Source: Vibrio tapetis subsp. tapetis (GTDB taxonomy: Bacteria; Pseudomonadota; Gammaproteobacteria; Enterobacterales; Vibrionaceae). From it: a stretch of DNA of 64,000 nt. Shown here piece after piece: positions 23,823 to 42,508 of this stretch; the first letter of the stretch is position 1; each line of letters begins with the position of its first letter. The notes under the pieces were generated by a model, which was given only the letters and a program-made list of their open reading frames with translations, was not told where the DNA came from and did not search any database. The stretch covers positions 992,001 to 1,056,000 of the forward strand of contig NZ_LT960612.1 in the NCBI RefSeq assembly GCF_900233005.1, read 5' to 3'. The position numbers were made by a program, and so were the translations under genes.

Positions 23823-26800
23823 ATGCACCATACACACAAGGTAACTGGCGGCTTCACCGAAATGGGTGATGATCGTTATTATAAAATTGAAAATGTCGAT
23901 TCAATGGCACCATTCTTTATCAGTGTTGTTTCTTCGAGCGATCACTGGTTGTTTATTTCATCGACCGGTTGTTTGTCTGCTGGGCGTATTCGTCCGGAAA
24001 ATGCCCTGTTTCCATATCGCTCTGTTGACCATATTCACGAGAGTGCTGAAAACACCGGTTCCAAAACTGTATTTCGCGTACCAACCAAAGCAGGAGTGGT
24101 CAACTGGGAACCGTTCAATCCTCAACATGATGGCATCTATAATTTACAGAGAAACTTGTACAAAAATGTAGTGGGTGACAAAGTCTTGTTTGAAGAGATT
24201 AACCACACTCTGCAATTGCGCTTTTGCTACAGCTGGTCTACGAGTGAGCAGTTTGGTTTTATTCGACGCAGTGAGTTGACGGATCTATCGAGCGTGAGTC
24301 GCTCTATAGAAATGTTAGATGGTATACAAAATATCTTACCACCAGGCGCTCCATTACCTGCGTTACAAACACGTAGTGCATTAGTGGACGCGTATAAGTG
24401 GAACGAACGAGTTGAACATAGCTCATTGGCACTGTACAGCATGTACGCTATGTTGAGTGACAAAGCGGCACCGGCGGAATCGTTACTTGCAACCAGTGTA
24501 TTCAGTCTTGGGTGTGACAGTGCCAATATCTTACTTTCGTCGGGTCAATTGCAAGCATTTAGGCAAGGTAAGCCTGTTCAAGCTGAGCCACTAACCAAAG
24601 GGCTTCGTGGTTCATACCTAATCAATAAAACCGTTGATCTCAAAGCGGATCAAAGTGCTAGCTGGTACATAGTGGCGGATATTGATAAGAGTCATTCTGA
24701 TATTGCTCGTTTTATGCTTCAGCCGTGCAATGAAATAGACATAGAGCGCAGTATTACGGCCAATAAACAAGAGCTTATCAGCTTAATGTCTGGCGCTGAT
24801 GCTTGGCAGTTGACCAATAAAGAAGAAACCTGCGTCCACCATTACGCTAACGTACTTTTCAATAATATGCGTGGTGGTGTGTTTGTTGATGGTTATCAGC
24901 TGGATATTCAAGACGTTCGAAAAACCATTACACACTCAAATAGCGTTGTAGCAAAAAGGCACCAAACGTTTTTTGACCAACTTGAAAATAAGTTAAGTCA
25001 TCAAGAATTAATTGCCTTAGCAAAATTACAAGATGACCCTCAATTGCTGCGCCTATGCTATGAGTACTTGCCGCTCACATTTGGCCGTCGTCATGGTGAT
25101 CCAAGCCGCCCTTGGAACCATTACGAGATTAAGGTCAAAGATGAAAATGGTGACAGACTGCTTTCTTACCAAGGCAACTGGCGTGATATTTTCCAAAATT
25201 GGGAAGCCAGTGCATTAAGTTATCCGGAGTTTATCTCCTCATTCATTGCTAAGTTTACTAATGCCTCAACCATCGATGGTTACAACCCGTATCGCATCAC
25301 TAAAGATGGCATTGATTGGGAGATATTAGACCCAGAAGACCCGTGGAGTAATATCGGCTACTGGGGCGATCACCAGATCATATATTTGCTTAAATTCTTA
25401 GAGTTAGCGAATAACTACCAACAGACCGAACTCATTAAGTTACTAAACCAAGATTGCTTTAGTTACGCCAACGTTCCTTATGAGCTTTGTGACGAAAAAG
25501 GCTTGTTTGCGAACCCGAAAGATACCGTCAGCTTTAATGGAAACACTCAAAAAAGAGTGGAACAAAAAGTAGATGAGATCGGCAGTGATGGACGTTTGAT
25601 CTTAGATAGCGATGGTGAGGTTTACCTCGTTAACCTAACAGAAAAACTGTTGGTTCCTTTGCTTTCAAAGTTAAGTAACTTAGTGCTAGACGGTGGTATT
25701 TGGCTAAATACACAAAGACCTGAATGGAATGATGCGAATAATGCGATAGTCGGCAACGGTCTCTCCATGGTTACGCTCTATTACATGCGTCGTTATGTGG
25801 CCTTCATGCAAGAGCTATTGTGTAAAGCGCCGTCTACTGTGTCTTTATCTACCGATGTCCTCGACTGGTTAACGAGTACGATGAAAATTCTGGAATCAGC
25901 AGCCAAAGAGATCAGACAAAACACAGTGACTCGCCAAACTCGCCGCGCAATTTTGACGCGGTTAGAAAAAGCGGCGAGTGATTATCGTCAACGAGTTTAT
26001 AGGACTGGCGGGTTTAGCGGGAAGACTCAGGTTGAGCTGGGTGCCATTACTGAGTTAATGGATGTGAGCCTAACGGTGCTAGATGACACCATTGCAAACA
26101 ATAAGCGTGAAGACGGTCTGTTTAATGCTTATAACATCATTAATTACTCTGCTGAAAACCTAGAAGTGAGTGAATTGTACCCAATGCTTGAAGGGCAAGT
26201 TGCCATTTTGAGTGCTGGTGTATTGCAGCCCAAGCAAGCGGTAACGCTATTAGAGCGTCTATTTGCAAGCGAGATGTATCGTGACGATCAGCAAAGTTTC
26301 ATGCTTTACCCAGATAGAAACTTAGCCCCTTTTATTAATAAAAATAGTATCCCGTCGGAACGTCTTGTGGACAACGAGCTTATTCAATTGATGCTGGCTA
26401 AAGGTGATACTCGCGTTGTCAATATGGATGTAAATGGTAGCTATCACTTCAACCCATCCTTTGAGAATAGTGAGGCATTGGACTCAGTATTAGCTAAGTT
26501 GGAATACAGCTGCGCTACTGATGAAGCAAAACAGCAGATCCGCGATACGTATGAAATGGTCTTTACTCATAAAGAGTTTACCGGGCGTTCTGGCACCATG
26601 TTTGGTTATGAAGGTTTAGGCAGCATCTACTGGCACATGGTTTCTAAGTTGTTGCTAGCGGTACAAGAAAACTACCACACCGCGTACACACTCGACTCAA
26701 ATAGTGAAGAAACGCGTAAGTTGGCTGAATTCTATTACCGAGTTCGTGAAGGCATTGGGTTCAACAAAACGCCTCAAAACTATGGCGCATTTCCAACTGA

Positions 26801-27236
26801 TCCGTATTCGCATACACCAAAGCAGTCAGGCGCTCAGCAACCAGGCATGACGGGGCAAGTTAAAGAGGAGATCTTAACGCGTTTCCGTGAGCTGGGCCTG
26901 TATGTTCATGACGGTGTTATTGCTATTAACCCTTCCTTGTTAAAACAAGACGAGTTTTTGGACTCTTCCCAGTCATTCAAATTTGAGAATGTAGCTGGAG
27001 AATCTCAGAGCCTTTGGGTTAGCGAAGATGGTATTGCGTTTACCTATTGTCAGGTTCCATTCATCTATCAATTGACTGACGATAACGCGATGTTAATAGC
27101 GGTGGAATACGTGAATGGAGATACTGAGGTGCGTTGCGGTGCTGAGTTATCAGGGGCGGAAAGCCAAGCGATTTTTGCCAGAAGTGGAATCATTAAGCGG
27201 GTTAGAGTTCATGTACCTGTGAATCATTTGCTGTAA
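23823..27236 (+). CDS. Very large phosphorylase-like enzyme, candidate beta-1,3-glucan phosphorylase
   Basis: This is a 1137-residue cytoplasmic protein without a signal peptide. It looks like a GH94-related inverting phosphorylase: a beta-rich N-terminal region (about 1-330), then a long helical (alpha/alpha)6 part. The motif DPEDPWSNIGYWGDHQ at about residue 500 is a good candidate for the catalytic aspartate region. Late motifs are GYEGLGSIYWHMVSKL and TPKQSGAQQPGMTGQ. The length is much greater than that of chitobiose or cellobiose phosphorylases (about 800) and fits the GH149/GH161 beta-1,3-glucan phosphorylases (about 1100-1200). The surrounding GH16, GH3 and importer genes support phosphorolysis of laminari-oligosaccharides to glucose-1-phosphate. 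The exact family could not be settled by reading. Confidence 0.6.
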   Translation: MHHTHKVTGGFTEMGDDRYYKIENVDSMAPFFISVVSSSDHWLFISSTGCLSAGRIRPENALFPYRSVDHIHESAENTGSKTVFRVPTKAGVVNWEPFNPQHDGIYNLQRNLYKNVVGDKVLFEEINHTLQLRFCYSWSTSEQFGFIRRSELTDLSSVSRSIEMLDGIQNILPPGAPLPALQTRSALVDAYKWNERVEHSSLALYSMYAMLSDKAAPAESLLATSVFSLGCDSANILLSSGQLQAFRQGKPVQAEPLTKGLRGSYLINKTVDLKADQSASWYIVADIDKSHSDIARFMLQPCNEIDIERSITANKQELISLMSGADAWQLTNKEETCVHHYANVLFNNMRGGVFVDGYQLDIQDVRKTITHSNSVVAKRHQTFFDQLENKLSHQELIALAKLQDDPQLLRLCYEYLPLTFGRRHGDPSRPWNHYEIKVKDENGDRLLSYQGNWRDIFQNWEASALSYPEFISSFIAKFTNASTIDGYNPYRITKDGIDWEILDPEDPWSNIGYWGDHQIIYLLKFLELANNYQQTELIKLLNQDCFSYANVPYELCDEKGLFANPKDTVSFNGNTQKRVEQKVDEIGSDGRLILDSDGEVYLVNLTEKLLVPLLSKLSNLVLDGGIWLNTQRPEWNDANNAIVGNGLSMVTLYYMRRYVAFMQELLCKAPSTVSLSTDVLDWLTSTMKILESAAKEIRQNTVTRQTRRAILTRLEKAASDYRQRVYRTGGFSGKTQVELGAITELMDVSLTVLDDTIANNKREDGLFNAYNIINYSAENLEVSELYPMLEGQVAILSAGVLQPKQAVTLLERLFASEMYRDDQQSFMLYPDRNLAPFINKNSIPSERLVDNELIQLMLAKGDTRVVNMDVNGSYHFNPSFENSEALDSVLAKLEYSCATDEAKQQIRDTYEMVFTHKEFTGRSGTMFGYEGLGSIYWHMVSKLLLAVQENYHTAYTLDSNSEETRKLAEFYYRVREGIGFNKTPQNYGAFPTDPYSHTPKQSGAQQPGMTGQVKEEILTRFRELGLYVHDGVIAINPSLLKQDEFLDSSQSFKFENVAGESQSLWVSEDGIAFTYCQVPFIYQLTDDNAMLIAVEYVNGDTEVRCGAELSGAESQAIFARSGIIKRVRVHVPVNHLL

Positions 27237-37462: not shown

Positions 37463-39973
37463 ATGGAAACATGCCCATACTTTGCCGATTGGCCAAAAAT
37501 TAATATCAAAAAAGACCCGAAAATAGAGCAGACAATTGCGGAAATACTGGCGCAAATGACTCTGGAAGAAAAAATAGGCCAAATGATTCAGCCTAATCTA
37601 AGAGACGTTACCCCGGAAGAAGCAAAAGACTATAAGCTTGGTTCTATTTTAAACGGAGGAGGCGCTTGGCCAAATGAAAATAAACATGCGAGTGCACAGT
37701 GTTGGGCCAACAAAGCAGACGAGTTCTGGCTCGCTGTTGAAAACGCATTTTCAGAACGTCCATTTCGAATTCCATTTATGTGGGCGACCGATGCGGTACA
37801 TGGCCATAACAATGTGTTTGGAGCAACGGTATTTCCTCACAATATAGGGCTTGGTGCTGCCCGCGATAGTGGACTTGTTCGTAAAATTGGCGAAATTACC
37901 GCCCGAGAGATTGTCGCAACAGGCTTGGATTGGACATTCGCACCGACTGTTGCCACGCCTCGAAATTTGCGTTGGGGGCGAGTGTATGAAGGCTACTCCG
38001 AAGATCCGACCATTGCTTATCATTATGCGGAACAAATGGTATTGGGCTTACAAGGTAACTTACAAGAACTTAAAACGGATTTAAAAGTGCTTTCTAACGT
38101 TAAGCACTGGCTGGGAGACGGCGGAACGATTAATGGTGTCGATCGTGGAGTGAATGGCTATTCTGAGGAACTACTTCGTAATATTCACGGCCCCGGATAC
38201 TTTAGTGGCTTACAAGCTGGGGCACAGGTGGTGATGTCATCCTTTAACAGTTGGCGAAACGAGGCCAATTATGACCATTCAATTACCGATGTTGATTATA
38301 ATCATAAAATTCATGGTAGTAAGTACTTGCTAACCGATGTTCTAAAGAAAAATATGGGATTTGATGGTGTTGTAGTAACAGACTGGCATGGCCATGCTGA
38401 AATAAGTAAGTGCTCTGACGGTGATGCAACTTATGCGATAAATGCCGGTAACGATGTACTGATGGTTCCAGTTAGGGAACACTGGAAAAATGTCTGGCAG
38501 CAAACCTTGTTTGATGTAAGAAATGGCGGCATTCCAATGACACGTATCGATGATGCTGTAACGAGAATTTTGAGAATTAAATCTCGTGCTGGCTTGTGGG
38601 AAAAGGTTCAACCAAGTAAACGTCGATTAGCCGGAGATTCCACCGTATTGGGATCTGATGAGCATCGATCTGTGGCACGTGAAGCGGTACGAAAATCGTT
38701 GGTTTTGTTAAAAAACGACAATAACCTGCTCCCTTTAGCTGCCAATCAAAAAGTGTGGTTAACAGGCAGCGCTGCAGATGATTTACAAAAACAAGCAGGG
38801 GGCTGGAATTTGACGTGGCAAGGTGATGAAAATTCAGTCTCTGATTTCCCTGGTGCTACAACGTTAAAAATGGCTCTGGAATTGGAAATGCCTAACCTTA
38901 AATTCGATCCTAATCAACAAGGCGATTATCAGGCAGGAGATGTGGCCATTGTGGTATTTGGCGAAGATCCATATGCAGAAATGATGGGAGATATAAAAAC
39001 GTGGCAAAGCTTAGAATATTCTAGTTTGAAACGCAGCTACGCTAAGGATTGTGCTCTTATTGAAGCGCTCAATTCAAAAGGAGTAAAGGTCGTTTCGGTG
39101 TTCTTTAGTGGCAGACCTTTGTATCTTAATAAAGAAATAGACTTGTCTGATGCATTTGTTGCGGCGTGGTTACCTGGGAGCGAAGGTTTAGGGATCACTG
39201 ATGTGTTGGTTGGAGATCCAGTAGTCGAACAACCACTGGGAGTAACGGATGAGTGTTACAAATTGAAAGTAACACCACGATTTGATTTCCAGGGTAAGTT
39301 GTCATTCAGTTGGCCAAATAAAATGCGCAGTGATGCGGTAAACGCCATTCCATCTCACGTGCCAGATTATGTACTGCCGACTCAAGAACAAGATCCAGAG
39401 GGAGAGCATAAACCACTATTTGACCTAGGTTACGGCCTAACGTATCAAGATAATGTCCAGGTGTACCTTGAGTTGGACAAAGGTGAAGTTGATGATACAG
39501 CGCAGAATAAACCACTTGAACTGTATGGAATAAAAGCAAACGTTGGCGACTATCAACTTAAGCTCAGAGACGGTGAACATATCATGGGGATAGACGTTTC
39601 TCGTAATAACCCGCTCATTCTTAAAAGTGTTGAGACTGCACCTTATAATTACCAACAACAGCAAGATGCAATTCGTTGGGTGTGTCATGATGGTGGGGGT
39701 GAGTTATATCTTCAGTCGAATGATTGCAGCGTAGATAACTTATCTGGATTTTCAAATGGACTGAAATTTGATATTAAGATCATCAATTATAATGCTGAAA
39801 TTTTGGTTGGAGTTTCAGATGGAATGGGAACGGGTATCGACATTAGTGACTTAATTGATGCAAATCTAATAGAGAGTGGCGAGTTTCAAACTATTGAACT
39901 TCCTATGAGTGCGTTTGGGAAGCAGGATATGCGTTACATTGAACATTATGCTTGCGCAATCTCGCCCTTTTAA
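37463..39973 (+). CDS. GH3 beta-glucosidase, C-terminus replaced by an IS insertion
   Basis: This 836-residue product has no signal peptide and is probably cytoplasmic. The GH3 (beta/alpha)8 domain holds the nucleophile D307 in GVVVTDWHGH, and a C-terminal beta-sandwich of the ExoP type follows. It would remove glucose from laminari-oligosaccharides. The last eight residues (YACAISPF) come from the left end of an IS200/IS605 element. After RYIEH the original reading continues across the element at 41966 with TPFVIGSRQALECVIGNI and then SWY-stop. The original protein was therefore about 849 residues and has lost its final 21. These form the last strands of the sandwich, so stability may be reduced while the catalytic domain is intact. 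Confidence 0.87.
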   Translation: METCPYFADWPKINIKKDPKIEQTIAEILAQMTLEEKIGQMIQPNLRDVTPEEAKDYKLGSILNGGGAWPNENKHASAQCWANKADEFWLAVENAFSERPFRIPFMWATDAVHGHNNVFGATVFPHNIGLGAARDSGLVRKIGEITAREIVATGLDWTFAPTVATPRNLRWGRVYEGYSEDPTIAYHYAEQMVLGLQGNLQELKTDLKVLSNVKHWLGDGGTINGVDRGVNGYSEELLRNIHGPGYFSGLQAGAQVVMSSFNSWRNEANYDHSITDVDYNHKIHGSKYLLTDVLKKNMGFDGVVVTDWHGHAEISKCSDGDATYAINAGNDVLMVPVREHWKNVWQQTLFDVRNGGIPMTRIDDAVTRILRIKSRAGLWEKVQPSKRRLAGDSTVLGSDEHRSVAREAVRKSLVLLKNDNNLLPLAANQKVWLTGSAADDLQKQAGGWNLTWQGDENSVSDFPGATTLKMALELEMPNLKFDPNQQGDYQAGDVAIVVFGEDPYAEMMGDIKTWQSLEYSSLKRSYAKDCALIEALNSKGVKVVSVFFSGRPLYLNKEIDLSDAFVAAWLPGSEGLGITDVLVGDPVVEQPLGVTDECYKLKVTPRFDFQGKLSFSWPNKMRSDAVNAIPSHVPDYVLPTQEQDPEGEHKPLFDLGYGLTYQDNVQVYLELDKGEVDDTAQNKPLELYGIKANVGDYQLKLRDGEHIMGIDVSRNNPLILKSVETAPYNYQQQQDAIRWVCHDGGGELYLQSNDCSVDNLSGFSNGLKFDIKIINYNAEILVGVSDGMGTGIDISDLIDANLIESGEFQTIELPMSAFGKQDMRYIEHYACAISPF

Positions 39974-39980
39974 GGGCGAG
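39961..39980. repeat. Perfect palindrome at the IS left end
   Basis: CTCGCCCTTTTAAGGGCGAG is a perfect 20-bp palindrome. It lies about 11 bp inside the left junction, suited to the subterminal hairpin recognised by TnpA. It also provides the new GH3 stop codon (TAA 39971-39973) and could act as a terminator. Confidence 0.75.
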
Positions 39981-39995
39981 TCAAGCAAGAGGTAA

Positions 39996-40460
39996 CTAGT
40001 CTTTTCTCTGACTTAAAGCGCGTGACGTTTTTACGGCGCTTTCACTTGGTGGTGTACTTTGGTTTTCGATGTACTGTTTAACAACGTCCAAACTCGCACC
40101 ACCACATGACACAACACAATAGCTAGGCGACCAAAAGTGATTACCCCAAAGCATTGTCTTTATGCGCTCCCAATACTCGCGCCTTAGCATGTATGACGAT
40201 TTCCCTTTCAGCTTACCAACCAAGTTCGATACAGCTACCTTCGGGTGAATAGACACCATCAAGTGAACGTGATCATGTTCACCACCGAACTCTAATAGTT
40301 CACAATCCATTTGCTTACACGTTTCCTTCATTATTTCTTTGGTTCTATCCAACATCTCTTTGGTGAAAACACCTCTACGATATTTAGTAACAAAGACTAG
40401 GTGCGCATTGTTCTTAAAAAGGCAGCTTCTGCCTGTTCTCCATTCGTACATATTAACCAT
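39996..40460 (-). CDS. tnpA: IS200/IS605 transposase TnpA (Y1 HUH enzyme)
   Basis: This protein of about 154 residues is the single-strand transposase. The HUH metal motif is GGEHDHVHLMV and the catalytic tyrosine lies in DVVKQYIENQ. The N-terminal stretch KNNAHLVFVTKYRRGVF is the standard family strand. The ATG at 40460 is chosen; 40451 is possible and the frame extends to 40514. It diverges from tnpB, as in IS605 itself. The enzyme appears intact, so the element could still move. Confidence 0.88.
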   Translation of the reverse strand: MVNMYEWRTGRSCLFKNNAHLVFVTKYRRGVFTKEMLDRTKEIMKETCKQMDCELLEFGGEHDHVHLMVSIHPKVAVSNLVGKLKGKSSYMLRREYWERIKTMLWGNHFWSPSYCVVSCGGASLDVVKQYIENQSTPPSESAVKTSRALSQRKD

Positions 40461-40528
40461 AGACTTGATTGACAATTTACCATTAAGTGTAATAATATTC
40501 GCTGCGAATGACAACCAATGGAACTATC

Positions 40529-41921
40529 ATGCTAACTGGCATCAAGCTACGCGCTAACCCTACACCAAAATCAAAAACTGGTACTAAGCCAGTGGATGGG
40601 CTGTGCGCGTAGTATTTGGAATGCCAAAGTCGATGAAGAAAGGTATTACCGTACTTTTGCGCGTAAGTATTATCCAATTGGCACTTATGCCCCTATTGAT
40701 CAGAAAGCATCGCAGTTCAAATCTAAAGAGCTATCACCTTGGCTCTATCAGTGTCCTAGCCAGATAATCCGCAACAGTGCTGTTAACTGGTATCAGACTT
40801 ACCAAAAGTTCATGAAAGGCGCGTGTGGGAGACCTAAGCGCAAACCTAAGACTGATCGCGGAAGTATCTACCTTACTCGTGAAGTGTTCCGCTTCGACCG
40901 TTGCGAAGATGGCAATTTACGCCTATTTATCGGTACGAAGACCAATAATATTGGTTACTTATCTTTTAAGGCTCATAGTAAGTTCGAGATCCCAAACTCG
41001 CTTTATGTGCGCAAAGAGCGTGGTCAATATTATGTGTCTTTCTGCTATGGGAACGGCAAGGATGAGTCAGAGCTACCTAGCAATGCTGAACACTTAGCAT
41101 TCCTGCAAGGCTCAACAAAAGAATATCTGGAAGAACACACCATTGGCGTAGACCGTGGTGTGGCTATCCCTGTACACGCTGGCTCTATGACGTTCGACTT
41201 TTCTGACGAAGAAGGCGATAACCAGAAAAAGAACATGACCAAAGCTGATCGCTACATTAAGCGATTACAACGCAAATTGGCGCGTCAAACTAAAGGCTCA
41301 AATCGCAGAAATAAAACCAAGTACCGCATTGCTACGCACCACGCTAAAAAGGCGAATATCCGTAACGATTTCGCCCACAAGACAAGCCGCGAGCTTGTCG
41401 ATAGCAAAGCAAAGGTTATTGTGTTCGAGGCTTTACGAACCTCAAGTATGACGCGCAAGCCAAAGGCAAAGCAGGACGAACAAGGCCGATATGTGTCAAA
41501 CAGAGCCAAGCAAAAGGCAGGGCTAAACAAGTCCATCTTAAACGTTGGTTGGCACATCATAGAAACGTACACCAAATACAAGGCTTACCAAGCAGGAAAA
41601 GCCGTATTCAAAGTAAATCCAGCCTACACCAGTCAGGAGTGCGCCAAGTGCGGTCACACTCACCCCGACAACCGAGACTCACAAGAACTATTTGTGTGCG
41701 GTAACTGTGGAAATTCTGACAATGCAGATAACAACGCATCACTGGTCATTAAGAAACGGGCAATTAATCTAATATTAGACACTGGAACGGTGTTGTCTGG
41801 CGATGGGGTTCTAAGAACCAAGTCAGATAGTGGACGTGGAGGCAATCGTAAGACTAGCCGAGCCAAAAGCTCGACTAGCGGTGTCCAACGAAGCGTCAAA
41901 AAAGAAAAGTTAGCGGCTTAG
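40529..41921 (+). pseudogene. tnpB: TnpB RNA-guided nuclease gene with a one-base insertion near the start
   Basis: The gene opens at ATG 40529 (MLTGIKLRANPTP), but the frame stops at 40610-40612. The continuing frame (to 41921) encodes KLVLSQWMGCARSIWNAKVD onward, as expected one base later. CCAAAATCAAAAACTGG at about 40565-40580 has one A too many; CCAAATCAAAAACTGG would read PNQKLV. The rest is full length. The RuvC triad is D186, E278 and D378, counted from ATG 40596, and the zinc finger is CAKCG with CGNCG. TnpB is an RNA-guided nuclease that helps the IS persist. Initiation at 40596 would lose about 23 N-terminal residues of the wedge domain. Slippage on the A run could restore some product. 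Confidence 0.82.
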
Positions 41922-41937
41922 GTTGTTATCTTAGAAG

Positions 41938-41957
41938 CTCGCTGCTTTAGCTGCGAG
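41938..41957 (+). ncRNA. IS right-end hairpin, probable 3' part of the TnpB guide RNA (omega RNA)
   Basis: CTCGCTGC-TTTA-GCTGCGAG forms an imperfect hairpin (one T/T mismatch) just after tnpB, then TAGTTCAC marks the IS end. In this family the transcript of the tnpB 3' end and right end is the guide RNA, with its guide in the flank. Here the guide would be the GH3 remnant beginning at about 41966. Extent upstream is not defined. Confidence 0.5.
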
Positions 41958-41965
41958 TAGTTCAC

Positions 41966-42031
41966 ACTCCTTTTGTCATAGGCAGTCGACAGGCCTTAGA
42001 GTGTGTGATTGGAAATATATCGTGGTATTGA
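41966..42031 (+). pseudogene. Displaced 3' end of the GH3 gene
   Basis: From ACT at 41966 the frame reads TPFVIGSRQALECVIGNI followed by SWY and a TGA at 42029-42031. Joined after RYIEH, it restores a normal ExoP-type end. It parallels the end of the nearby GH16 protein (NLLVFEPQGAMSFKLDNI). It has no start of its own. Confidence 0.82.
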
Positions 42032-42103
42032 TAGCTTTGACGATTAGAAAAGATGATGAAAAATGTAATTAGATCTATTAGGCATCAATAATTAGGAGAG
42101 AAT

Positions 42104-42508
42104 TTGACCATTAAATGTATCAGCTGGCAGCAAGCTCTGCCAGTTAGGCACCAAGTACTCTGGCCGACGAAGGCTCCAGATTTTTGCAAAATCGAAGGGG
42201 ATGAATTGGCGTATTACTATGGTTATTTTGTAAAAAATCAATTGGTTGCTGTAGCATCTATTTATCTCGATGGAAATAAAGCTCGTCTCAGAAAATTTGC
42301 GACCTTAAGTGCCTATCAATCACAAGGGATTGGGACGAAGTTGATCTCTCATATTCTTAAGGAACTTAATTCTTCGGATGTAACAACATTTTGGTGCGAT
42401 GCGAGAGCCAGCGCTGTCGGGTTTTATCAACGACTTGGGTTCATCGTGGAAGGAGAACTCTTTTATAAAGAACAGGTTTCTTATTATAAAATGTCTCGGC
42501 GCATTTAA
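42104..42508 (+). CDS. GNAT-family N-acetyltransferase
   Basis: This 134-residue protein has the acetyl-CoA motif RKFATLSAYQSQGIGTKLI (Q/RxxGxG/A) and the family C-terminal ARASAVGFYQRLGFIVEGE. The start is TTG at 42104, preceded by an AGGAGAG ribosome site; no better ATG exists. It is a single-domain GNAT of unknown substrate that stands alone between the IS insertion and the chitinase gene. Confidence 0.78.
   Translation: MTIKCISWQQALPVRHQVLWPTKAPDFCKIEGDELAYYYGYFVKNQLVAVASIYLDGNKARLRKFATLSAYQSQGIGTKLISHILKELNSSDVTTFWCDARASAVGFYQRLGFIVEGELFYKEQVSYYKMSRRI

What the first reader, a model, noticed from the sequence alone, without database searches (positions are those of the whole stretch)
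37463..42031. IS200/IS605 element sits inside the 3' end of the GH3 gene and the lost tail can be read on the far side
Seen: the GH3 protein ends after RYIEH with eight residues from the IS left end. Right after the IS right end, an open stretch reads TPFVIGSRQALECVIGNI then SWY-stop. The join ATTGAACA + CACTCC restores the frame exactly. This gives the ancestral end and the insertion site to within a few bases and shows an enzyme whose last 21 residues were swapped for a foreign tail. Inference: activity or stability may be altered.
Basis: seen in the sequence. Interest (0 to 1): 0.75.

Follow-up and report, generated by a model that had tools for sequence, protein, structure and literature searches.

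The report
Jumping gene clips sugar-enzyme tail
In a Vibrio bacterium, a small mobile DNA element sits inside a gene for a predicted sugar-cutting enzyme and replaces the protein's last 21 amino acids with nine of its own, which likely damages the protein's third domain; the event is ordinary, but the element's ends can be placed to the base.

Summary
The insertion is real and the lost tail can be read beyond the IS, but the exact join changes. Five copies of the IS in this genome, and empty sites in a relative for two of the other copies, put its ends at 39944-41965, inserted 3' of TTGAA without target duplication. The join is ATTGAA + ACTCC. The protein keeps 827 native residues, loses 21 and gains nine (HYACAISPF), not eight.

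Of 119 other listed homologues, 118 carry the tail; the exception is a 632-aa protein, apparently a fragment. In a predicted model of the intact homologue the tail forms the last two strands of the ExoP-type third domain, so its loss likely destabilises that domain (untested).

The GH3 copy alone has a frameshifted tnpB; the other four read 463 aa. By analogy with ISDra2, the displaced GH3 tail would be the guide with which TnpB, supplied in trans, cuts the empty allele (inferred). Ordinary IS605-type biology, cleanly documented.

The parts
37463..39943 (+). Native part of the GH3 gene, predicted exo-beta-glucanase (residues 1-827, ending RYIE)
   Evidence: PF00933 and PF01915; aligned with homologues through residue 827
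39939..39943 (+). Insertion target and presumed TAM, TTGAA
   Evidence: 5 of 5 genomic copies; 2 of 3 related copies in other genomes, the third not aligned there
39944..39973 (+). IS-coded foreign end of GH3: HYACAISPF + stop
   Evidence: Translation; the same nine residues end a chemoreceptor-like ORF (own reading) interrupted by another copy
39944..41965 (.). IS605-type element, 2022 bp (2021 bp in the other four copies)
   Evidence: Comparison of five copies; empty sites for two other copies in a relative
39944..40000 (+). Left end with a hairpin (39961-39980); the GH3 stop codon lies at its loop
   Evidence: DNA fold of 39930-40000, z -2.85, 2 of 200 shuffles as stable
39996..40460 (-). 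tnpA, Y1 transposase
   Evidence: PF01797, E 3e-45; 100% identical over 154 aa in 5 of 5 copies
40529..41921 (+). tnpB; in this copy one extra A near 40567 shifts the frame, leaving a 27-codon stub and a 441-aa ORF from 40596 without the N-terminal part
   Evidence: The four other copies read 463 aa from the same ATG; PF12323 at residues 1-32 of an intact copy, not found here
41760..41965 (+). 3' end of tnpB plus right end; presumed omega-RNA scaffold
   Evidence: Analogy with ISDra2 (PMC8612924 passages); RNA fold of 41760-41985 z -1.87, 9 of 200 shuffles as stable; right-end DNA hairpin z -1.54, 14 of 200; no Rfam match
41966..41981 (+). Presumed 16-nt guide, from the displaced GH3 tail
   Evidence: Directly 3' of the right end; the guide role is inferred
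41966..42031 (+). Displaced native GH3 end: TPFVIGSRQALECVIGNISWY + stop
   Evidence: Translation; homologous to intact tails
42104..42508 (+). GNAT acetyltransferase gene beyond the IS
   Evidence: PF13673, PF00583; a similar sequence, judged by eye, follows the intact GH3 in L045

Best explanation
An IS605-type element inserted just after TTGAA in a predicted GH3 exo-beta-glucanase gene, so that the protein now ends with nine IS-coded residues instead of its own last 21, which likely weakens or unfolds its third domain. Shown by sequence comparison: the exact ends, no target duplication, empty-site homology at two sister insertions, five nearly identical copies in the genome, and a frameshifted tnpB in this copy only. 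Inferred: TnpA placed it recently by peel-and-paste; the two catalytic domains remain but the ExoP-type C-terminal beta-sandwich lacks its last two strands; an omega-RNA made at the right end would carry the displaced GH3 tail as guide, and TnpB from an intact copy could cut an empty GH3 allele behind TTGAA, favouring retention. The confidence given is for the insertion, its ends and the join; damage to the domain is about 0.6 and guide action about 0.4.
For: Five copies share TTGAA|C...GTTCAC|. Flanks joined at these ends match a relative's empty site over 500 bases without a gap for copy L061, and with no gap near the junction for L062 (4 gap positions elsewhere in 487 columns). The joined GH3 is 848 aa, as is the closest intact homologue, RYIETPFVIGSR. 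118 of 119 other listed homologues have the tail. Model of that intact homologue: strands 830-834 and 838-847, pLDDT blocks 90-94, aligned with full-length ExoP 3ut0_D to model residue 848; PF18559 Exop_C covers 697-847. Model of the present protein: residues 824-836 below pLDDT 50. Element: PF01797, PF07282, PF01385. Guide precedent: PMC8612924 passages.
Against: No empty-site DNA from the same species was available, and the window-versus-L045 comparison broke into pieces and gave no usable DNA alignment. The two models used alignments of different depth (20 vs 48 rows) and their overall confidence differs (74.5 vs 87.0), so they are not a fair pair. PF18559 is also missed in the intact P0004. 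ExoP entries with only about 620 residues in the structure, one titled 'truncated', exist, though their deposited sequences are 822 long, and RmBgl3C, without domain 3, is active on laminari-oligosaccharides (PMC6987092 passages), so domain 3 may be dispensable. RNA-fold support is weak. No expression data.
Confidence: 0.9

Rival explanations
1. The join is the reader's (ATTGAACA + CACTCC), so the ancestral protein had an extra His and 849 residues.
For: Also in frame.
Against: The closest homologue lacks the His (P0002), and the empty sites of two other copies fit TTGAA|flank without a gap at the junction.
Confidence: 0.03
2. The truncation is harmless: the enzyme works without the last two strands because catalysis needs only domains 1 and 2.
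For: PF00933 and PF01915 are matched end to end; ExoP structures of about 620 residues exist; a GH3 exo-glucanase without domain 3 is active (passages of PMC6987092).
Against: The tail is kept in 118 of 119 other listed homologues and is confidently placed in the predicted fold of the intact homologue.
Confidence: 0.35
3. The tnpB frameshift is a sequencing error in a short A-run, and all five copies are intact.
For: It is a single homopolymer difference, and no other position is peculiar to this copy.
Against: The four other copies in the same assembly all read the shorter run.
Confidence: 0.35

Closest known systems
ISDra2, IS605 group of the IS200/IS605 family (PMC8612924, passages seen)
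   Same: TnpA and TnpB, insertion 3' of a five-base motif, flank directly 3' of the right end in guide position
   Different: Motif TTGAA rather than TTGAT; this copy's tnpB is frameshifted
Related IS copies in three other genomes of the genus (L057, L058, L059) and tnpB homologues on plasmids
   Same: 85-87% DNA identity, same outer ends in L057 and L058; plasmid TnpB up to 83% identical and mostly annotated as RNA-guided endonuclease
   Different: Other flanks; L058 and L059 matched only from the tnpB side
ExoP, GH3 exo-1,3/1,4-beta-glucanase of Pseudoalteromonas sp. BB1 (3ut0, 3usz)
   Same: Best sequence and fold match
   Different: The present protein lacks what is predicted to be the last two strands of domain 3
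GH3 of V. tapetis subsp. quintayensis (L045, P0004) and P0002 (source not named)
   Same: 82% and 86% identical, same register up to residue 827
   Different: Uninterrupted, with the native tail

Membership tests
IS200/IS605 (IS605 group) | Y1 (HUH) transposase | tested here: met
   PF01797, E 3e-45
IS200/IS605 (IS605 group) | tnpB with TNB/OrfB domains | tested here: met
   PF07282, PF01385 and N-terminal PF12323 in an intact copy; the window copy keeps the first two, not PF12323
IS200/IS605 (IS605 group) | Insertion 3' of a fixed short motif without target duplication | tested here: met
   TTGAA in 5 of 5 copies; gap-free empty site for L061 over 500 bases and no gap near the junction for L062
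IS200/IS605 (IS605 group) | Subterminal hairpins at both ends | tested here: inconclusive
   Left clear, z -2.85 (2 of 200 shuffles); right weak, z -1.54 (14 of 200)
IS200/IS605 (IS605 group) | omega-RNA from the right end guides TnpB | not testable with these tools
   Needs RNA and cleavage assays; no Rfam match at E <= 1
GH3 ExoP-type exo-beta-glucanase | GH3 N and C domains | tested here: met
   PF00933, PF01915
GH3 ExoP-type exo-beta-glucanase | Complete Exop_C third domain | tested here: inconclusive
   PF18559 found in P0002 to residue 847, not in this protein, but not in intact P0004 either; two predicted strands are missing here
GH3 ExoP-type exo-beta-glucanase | Exo-1,3/1,4-beta-glucanase activity | not testable with these tools
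   Needs an enzyme assay

The most novel reading that the evidence does not exclude
The GH3-borne copy, with broken tnpB, is a guide-only element: its right end turns the displaced GH3 tail into an omega-RNA that TnpB from sister copies uses in trans to destroy any empty GH3 allele, locking in a truncated metabolic enzyme against the host's interest.
Probability: 0.25. Interest if true: 0.5.

Novelty: new member of a known kind. Interest (0 to 1): 0.3.

Why it matters
It is a base-exact case of an IS605-type insertion that swaps a conserved protein end, with an intact close homologue for comparison. If the trans-guided retention holds, a host gene's own lost tail would be the address that keeps it broken, which can be tested in E. 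coli.

Tried and rejected
A copy of the empty GH3 site elsewhere in the genome was sought with a 19-base TTGAA+guide pattern and up to 3 mismatches: three hits, one of them the IS flank itself (2 mismatches) and two with 3 mismatches; the reversed control pattern gave two. Rfam gave nothing for 39500-42500. A dN/dS estimate against L045 was useless: dN 0.117, dS not estimable. The absence of PF18559 as proof of damage was rejected because intact P0004 misses it too. The VIA-align output says that a fifth or more of its rows cover only residues 16-664, so the third domain rests on the 3ut0 row. Paper searches were made; I saw no report of this insertion in their listings, which does not show that none exists. 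The original ExoP structure paper (Nakatani 2012) was seen only as a reference-list entry.

Full report
Source. The genome holding the window has three contigs, 5,725,871 bases in all; two are 3,788,452 and 1,855,153 bases, leaving 82,266, the size given for plasmid pVT1 of Vibrio tapetis CECT4600T in the abstract of PMC3033894 (start of abstract in a search listing). The window is therefore very likely from that strain, linked to brown ring disease of clams (inference). PMC5825899 (passages only) gives chromosomes of 3.7 and 1.8 Mb and a plasmid of 88 Kb, which for the plasmid agrees only roughly.

Observation. The GH3 ORF is 836 aa (37463-39973); then come an IS with divergent tnpA and tnpB and an open stretch that ends in SWY-stop. 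The IS occurs five times in the genome. Aligned, all five copies share TTGAAC at the left and GTTCAC at the right. Whether the C after TTGAA belongs to the IS is settled by empty sites. Copy L061 joined at TTGAA|flank matches relative G127 over 500 bases, 82.2% identical, without a gap; copy L062 matches over 487 columns, 72.5% identical, with 4 gap positions, none in the 91 columns shown around the junction. G127's GH3 coordinates equal those of the V. tapetis subsp. quintayensis contig, so it is probably that genome. The third comparison, window against L045, broke into pieces and gave no usable alignment. Of three related copies in other genomes, L057 and L058 show the same left motif and right end; L059 aligned only to near the right end.

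Join. With these ends GH3 reads ...MRYIE|TPFVIGSRQALECVIGNISWY, 848 aa. The closest intact homologue, P0002, is 848 aa and 86% identical and reads ...MRYIETPFVIGSRKPLECVIGNISWH. V. tapetis subsp. quintayensis reads RYIDTPLILGCVGDLECVIGNVSWY. In a 48-row alignment the 47 homologues all continue for 21 or more residues. Over the 120 listed proteins (of 7572 matches), only the present one and P0077, 632 aa and apparently a fragment, have fewer than 18. Of 49 loci examined, 46 align to residue 845 or beyond of the joined protein; L055 gave no hit, and L051 and L053 stop aligning earlier, both in draft contigs. Several of these loci are the same genome under two ids.

The element. TnpA has PF01797 and is 100% identical over 154 aa in five of five copies. 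tnpB reads 463 aa from the same ATG in four copies; in the GH3 copy one extra A shifts the frame and leaves a 441-aa ORF in which PF12323 is not found. Apart from that base, three single-base differences separate the five copies, so the spread is probably recent. In a search of 227 genomes of the genus, four, this one included, matched the IS at E <= 1e-50; only two candidates per genome were scored, so copies may be missed. Of the five insertions, four interrupt frames of 60 aa or more that are open when the flanks are joined, and one (L063) does not. In a chemoreceptor-like ORF (L061, own reading) the IS supplies the same nine residues, HYACAISPF.

Guide logic. In ISDra2, TnpB binds an RNA of about 150 nt that matches the 3' end of tnpB and the right end and whose last ~16 nt come from the flank; it cuts DNA next to the insertion motif, and the authors propose that this reinstates the element at the donor joint (PMC8612924, passages). 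PMC11870625 (a preprint; abstract, introduction and start of results seen) reports gene drive in plasmids by the same route. Here the motif would be TTGAA and the guide ACTCCTTTTGTCATAG. The subsp. quintayensis allele has TTGAT and 6 of 16 mismatches, so the guide would suit only close alleles. Everything about RNA, guide and supply in trans is inference; the RNA fold is only a little better than shuffles (z -1.87, 9 of 200).

Surroundings. A LacI-type regulator, a LamB-type porin and a GH16 gene lie upstream, which suits a beta-glucan-use locus (inference). The GNAT gene beyond the IS has a similar-looking sequence after the intact GH3 of the relative (by eye).

Verdict.

Noticed in passing
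window 40529-40607: tnpB of this copy alone carries one extra A in a short run, giving a 27-codon stub; the four other copies read 463 aa.
   Followed up: partly
L061 4932-6479: Another copy interrupts a chemoreceptor-like gene (own reading) and gives it the same nine-residue IS-coded tail, HYACAISPF.
   Followed up: partly
L064 307-6779: Another copy interrupts a phosphoribosyltransferase-like gene between a P-loop ATPase-like ORF and a DNA-methyltransferase-like ORF (own reading, no family search); possibly a defence island.
   Followed up: no
L062 1952-6612: Another copy interrupts a permease-like gene of what looks like an iron-type ABC importer (own reading); its empty site in G127 was used for the IS ends.
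   Followed up: partly
window 23823-27236: ORF of 1137 aa with no Pfam match at E <= 0.01, next to a GH16 gene.
   Followed up: no
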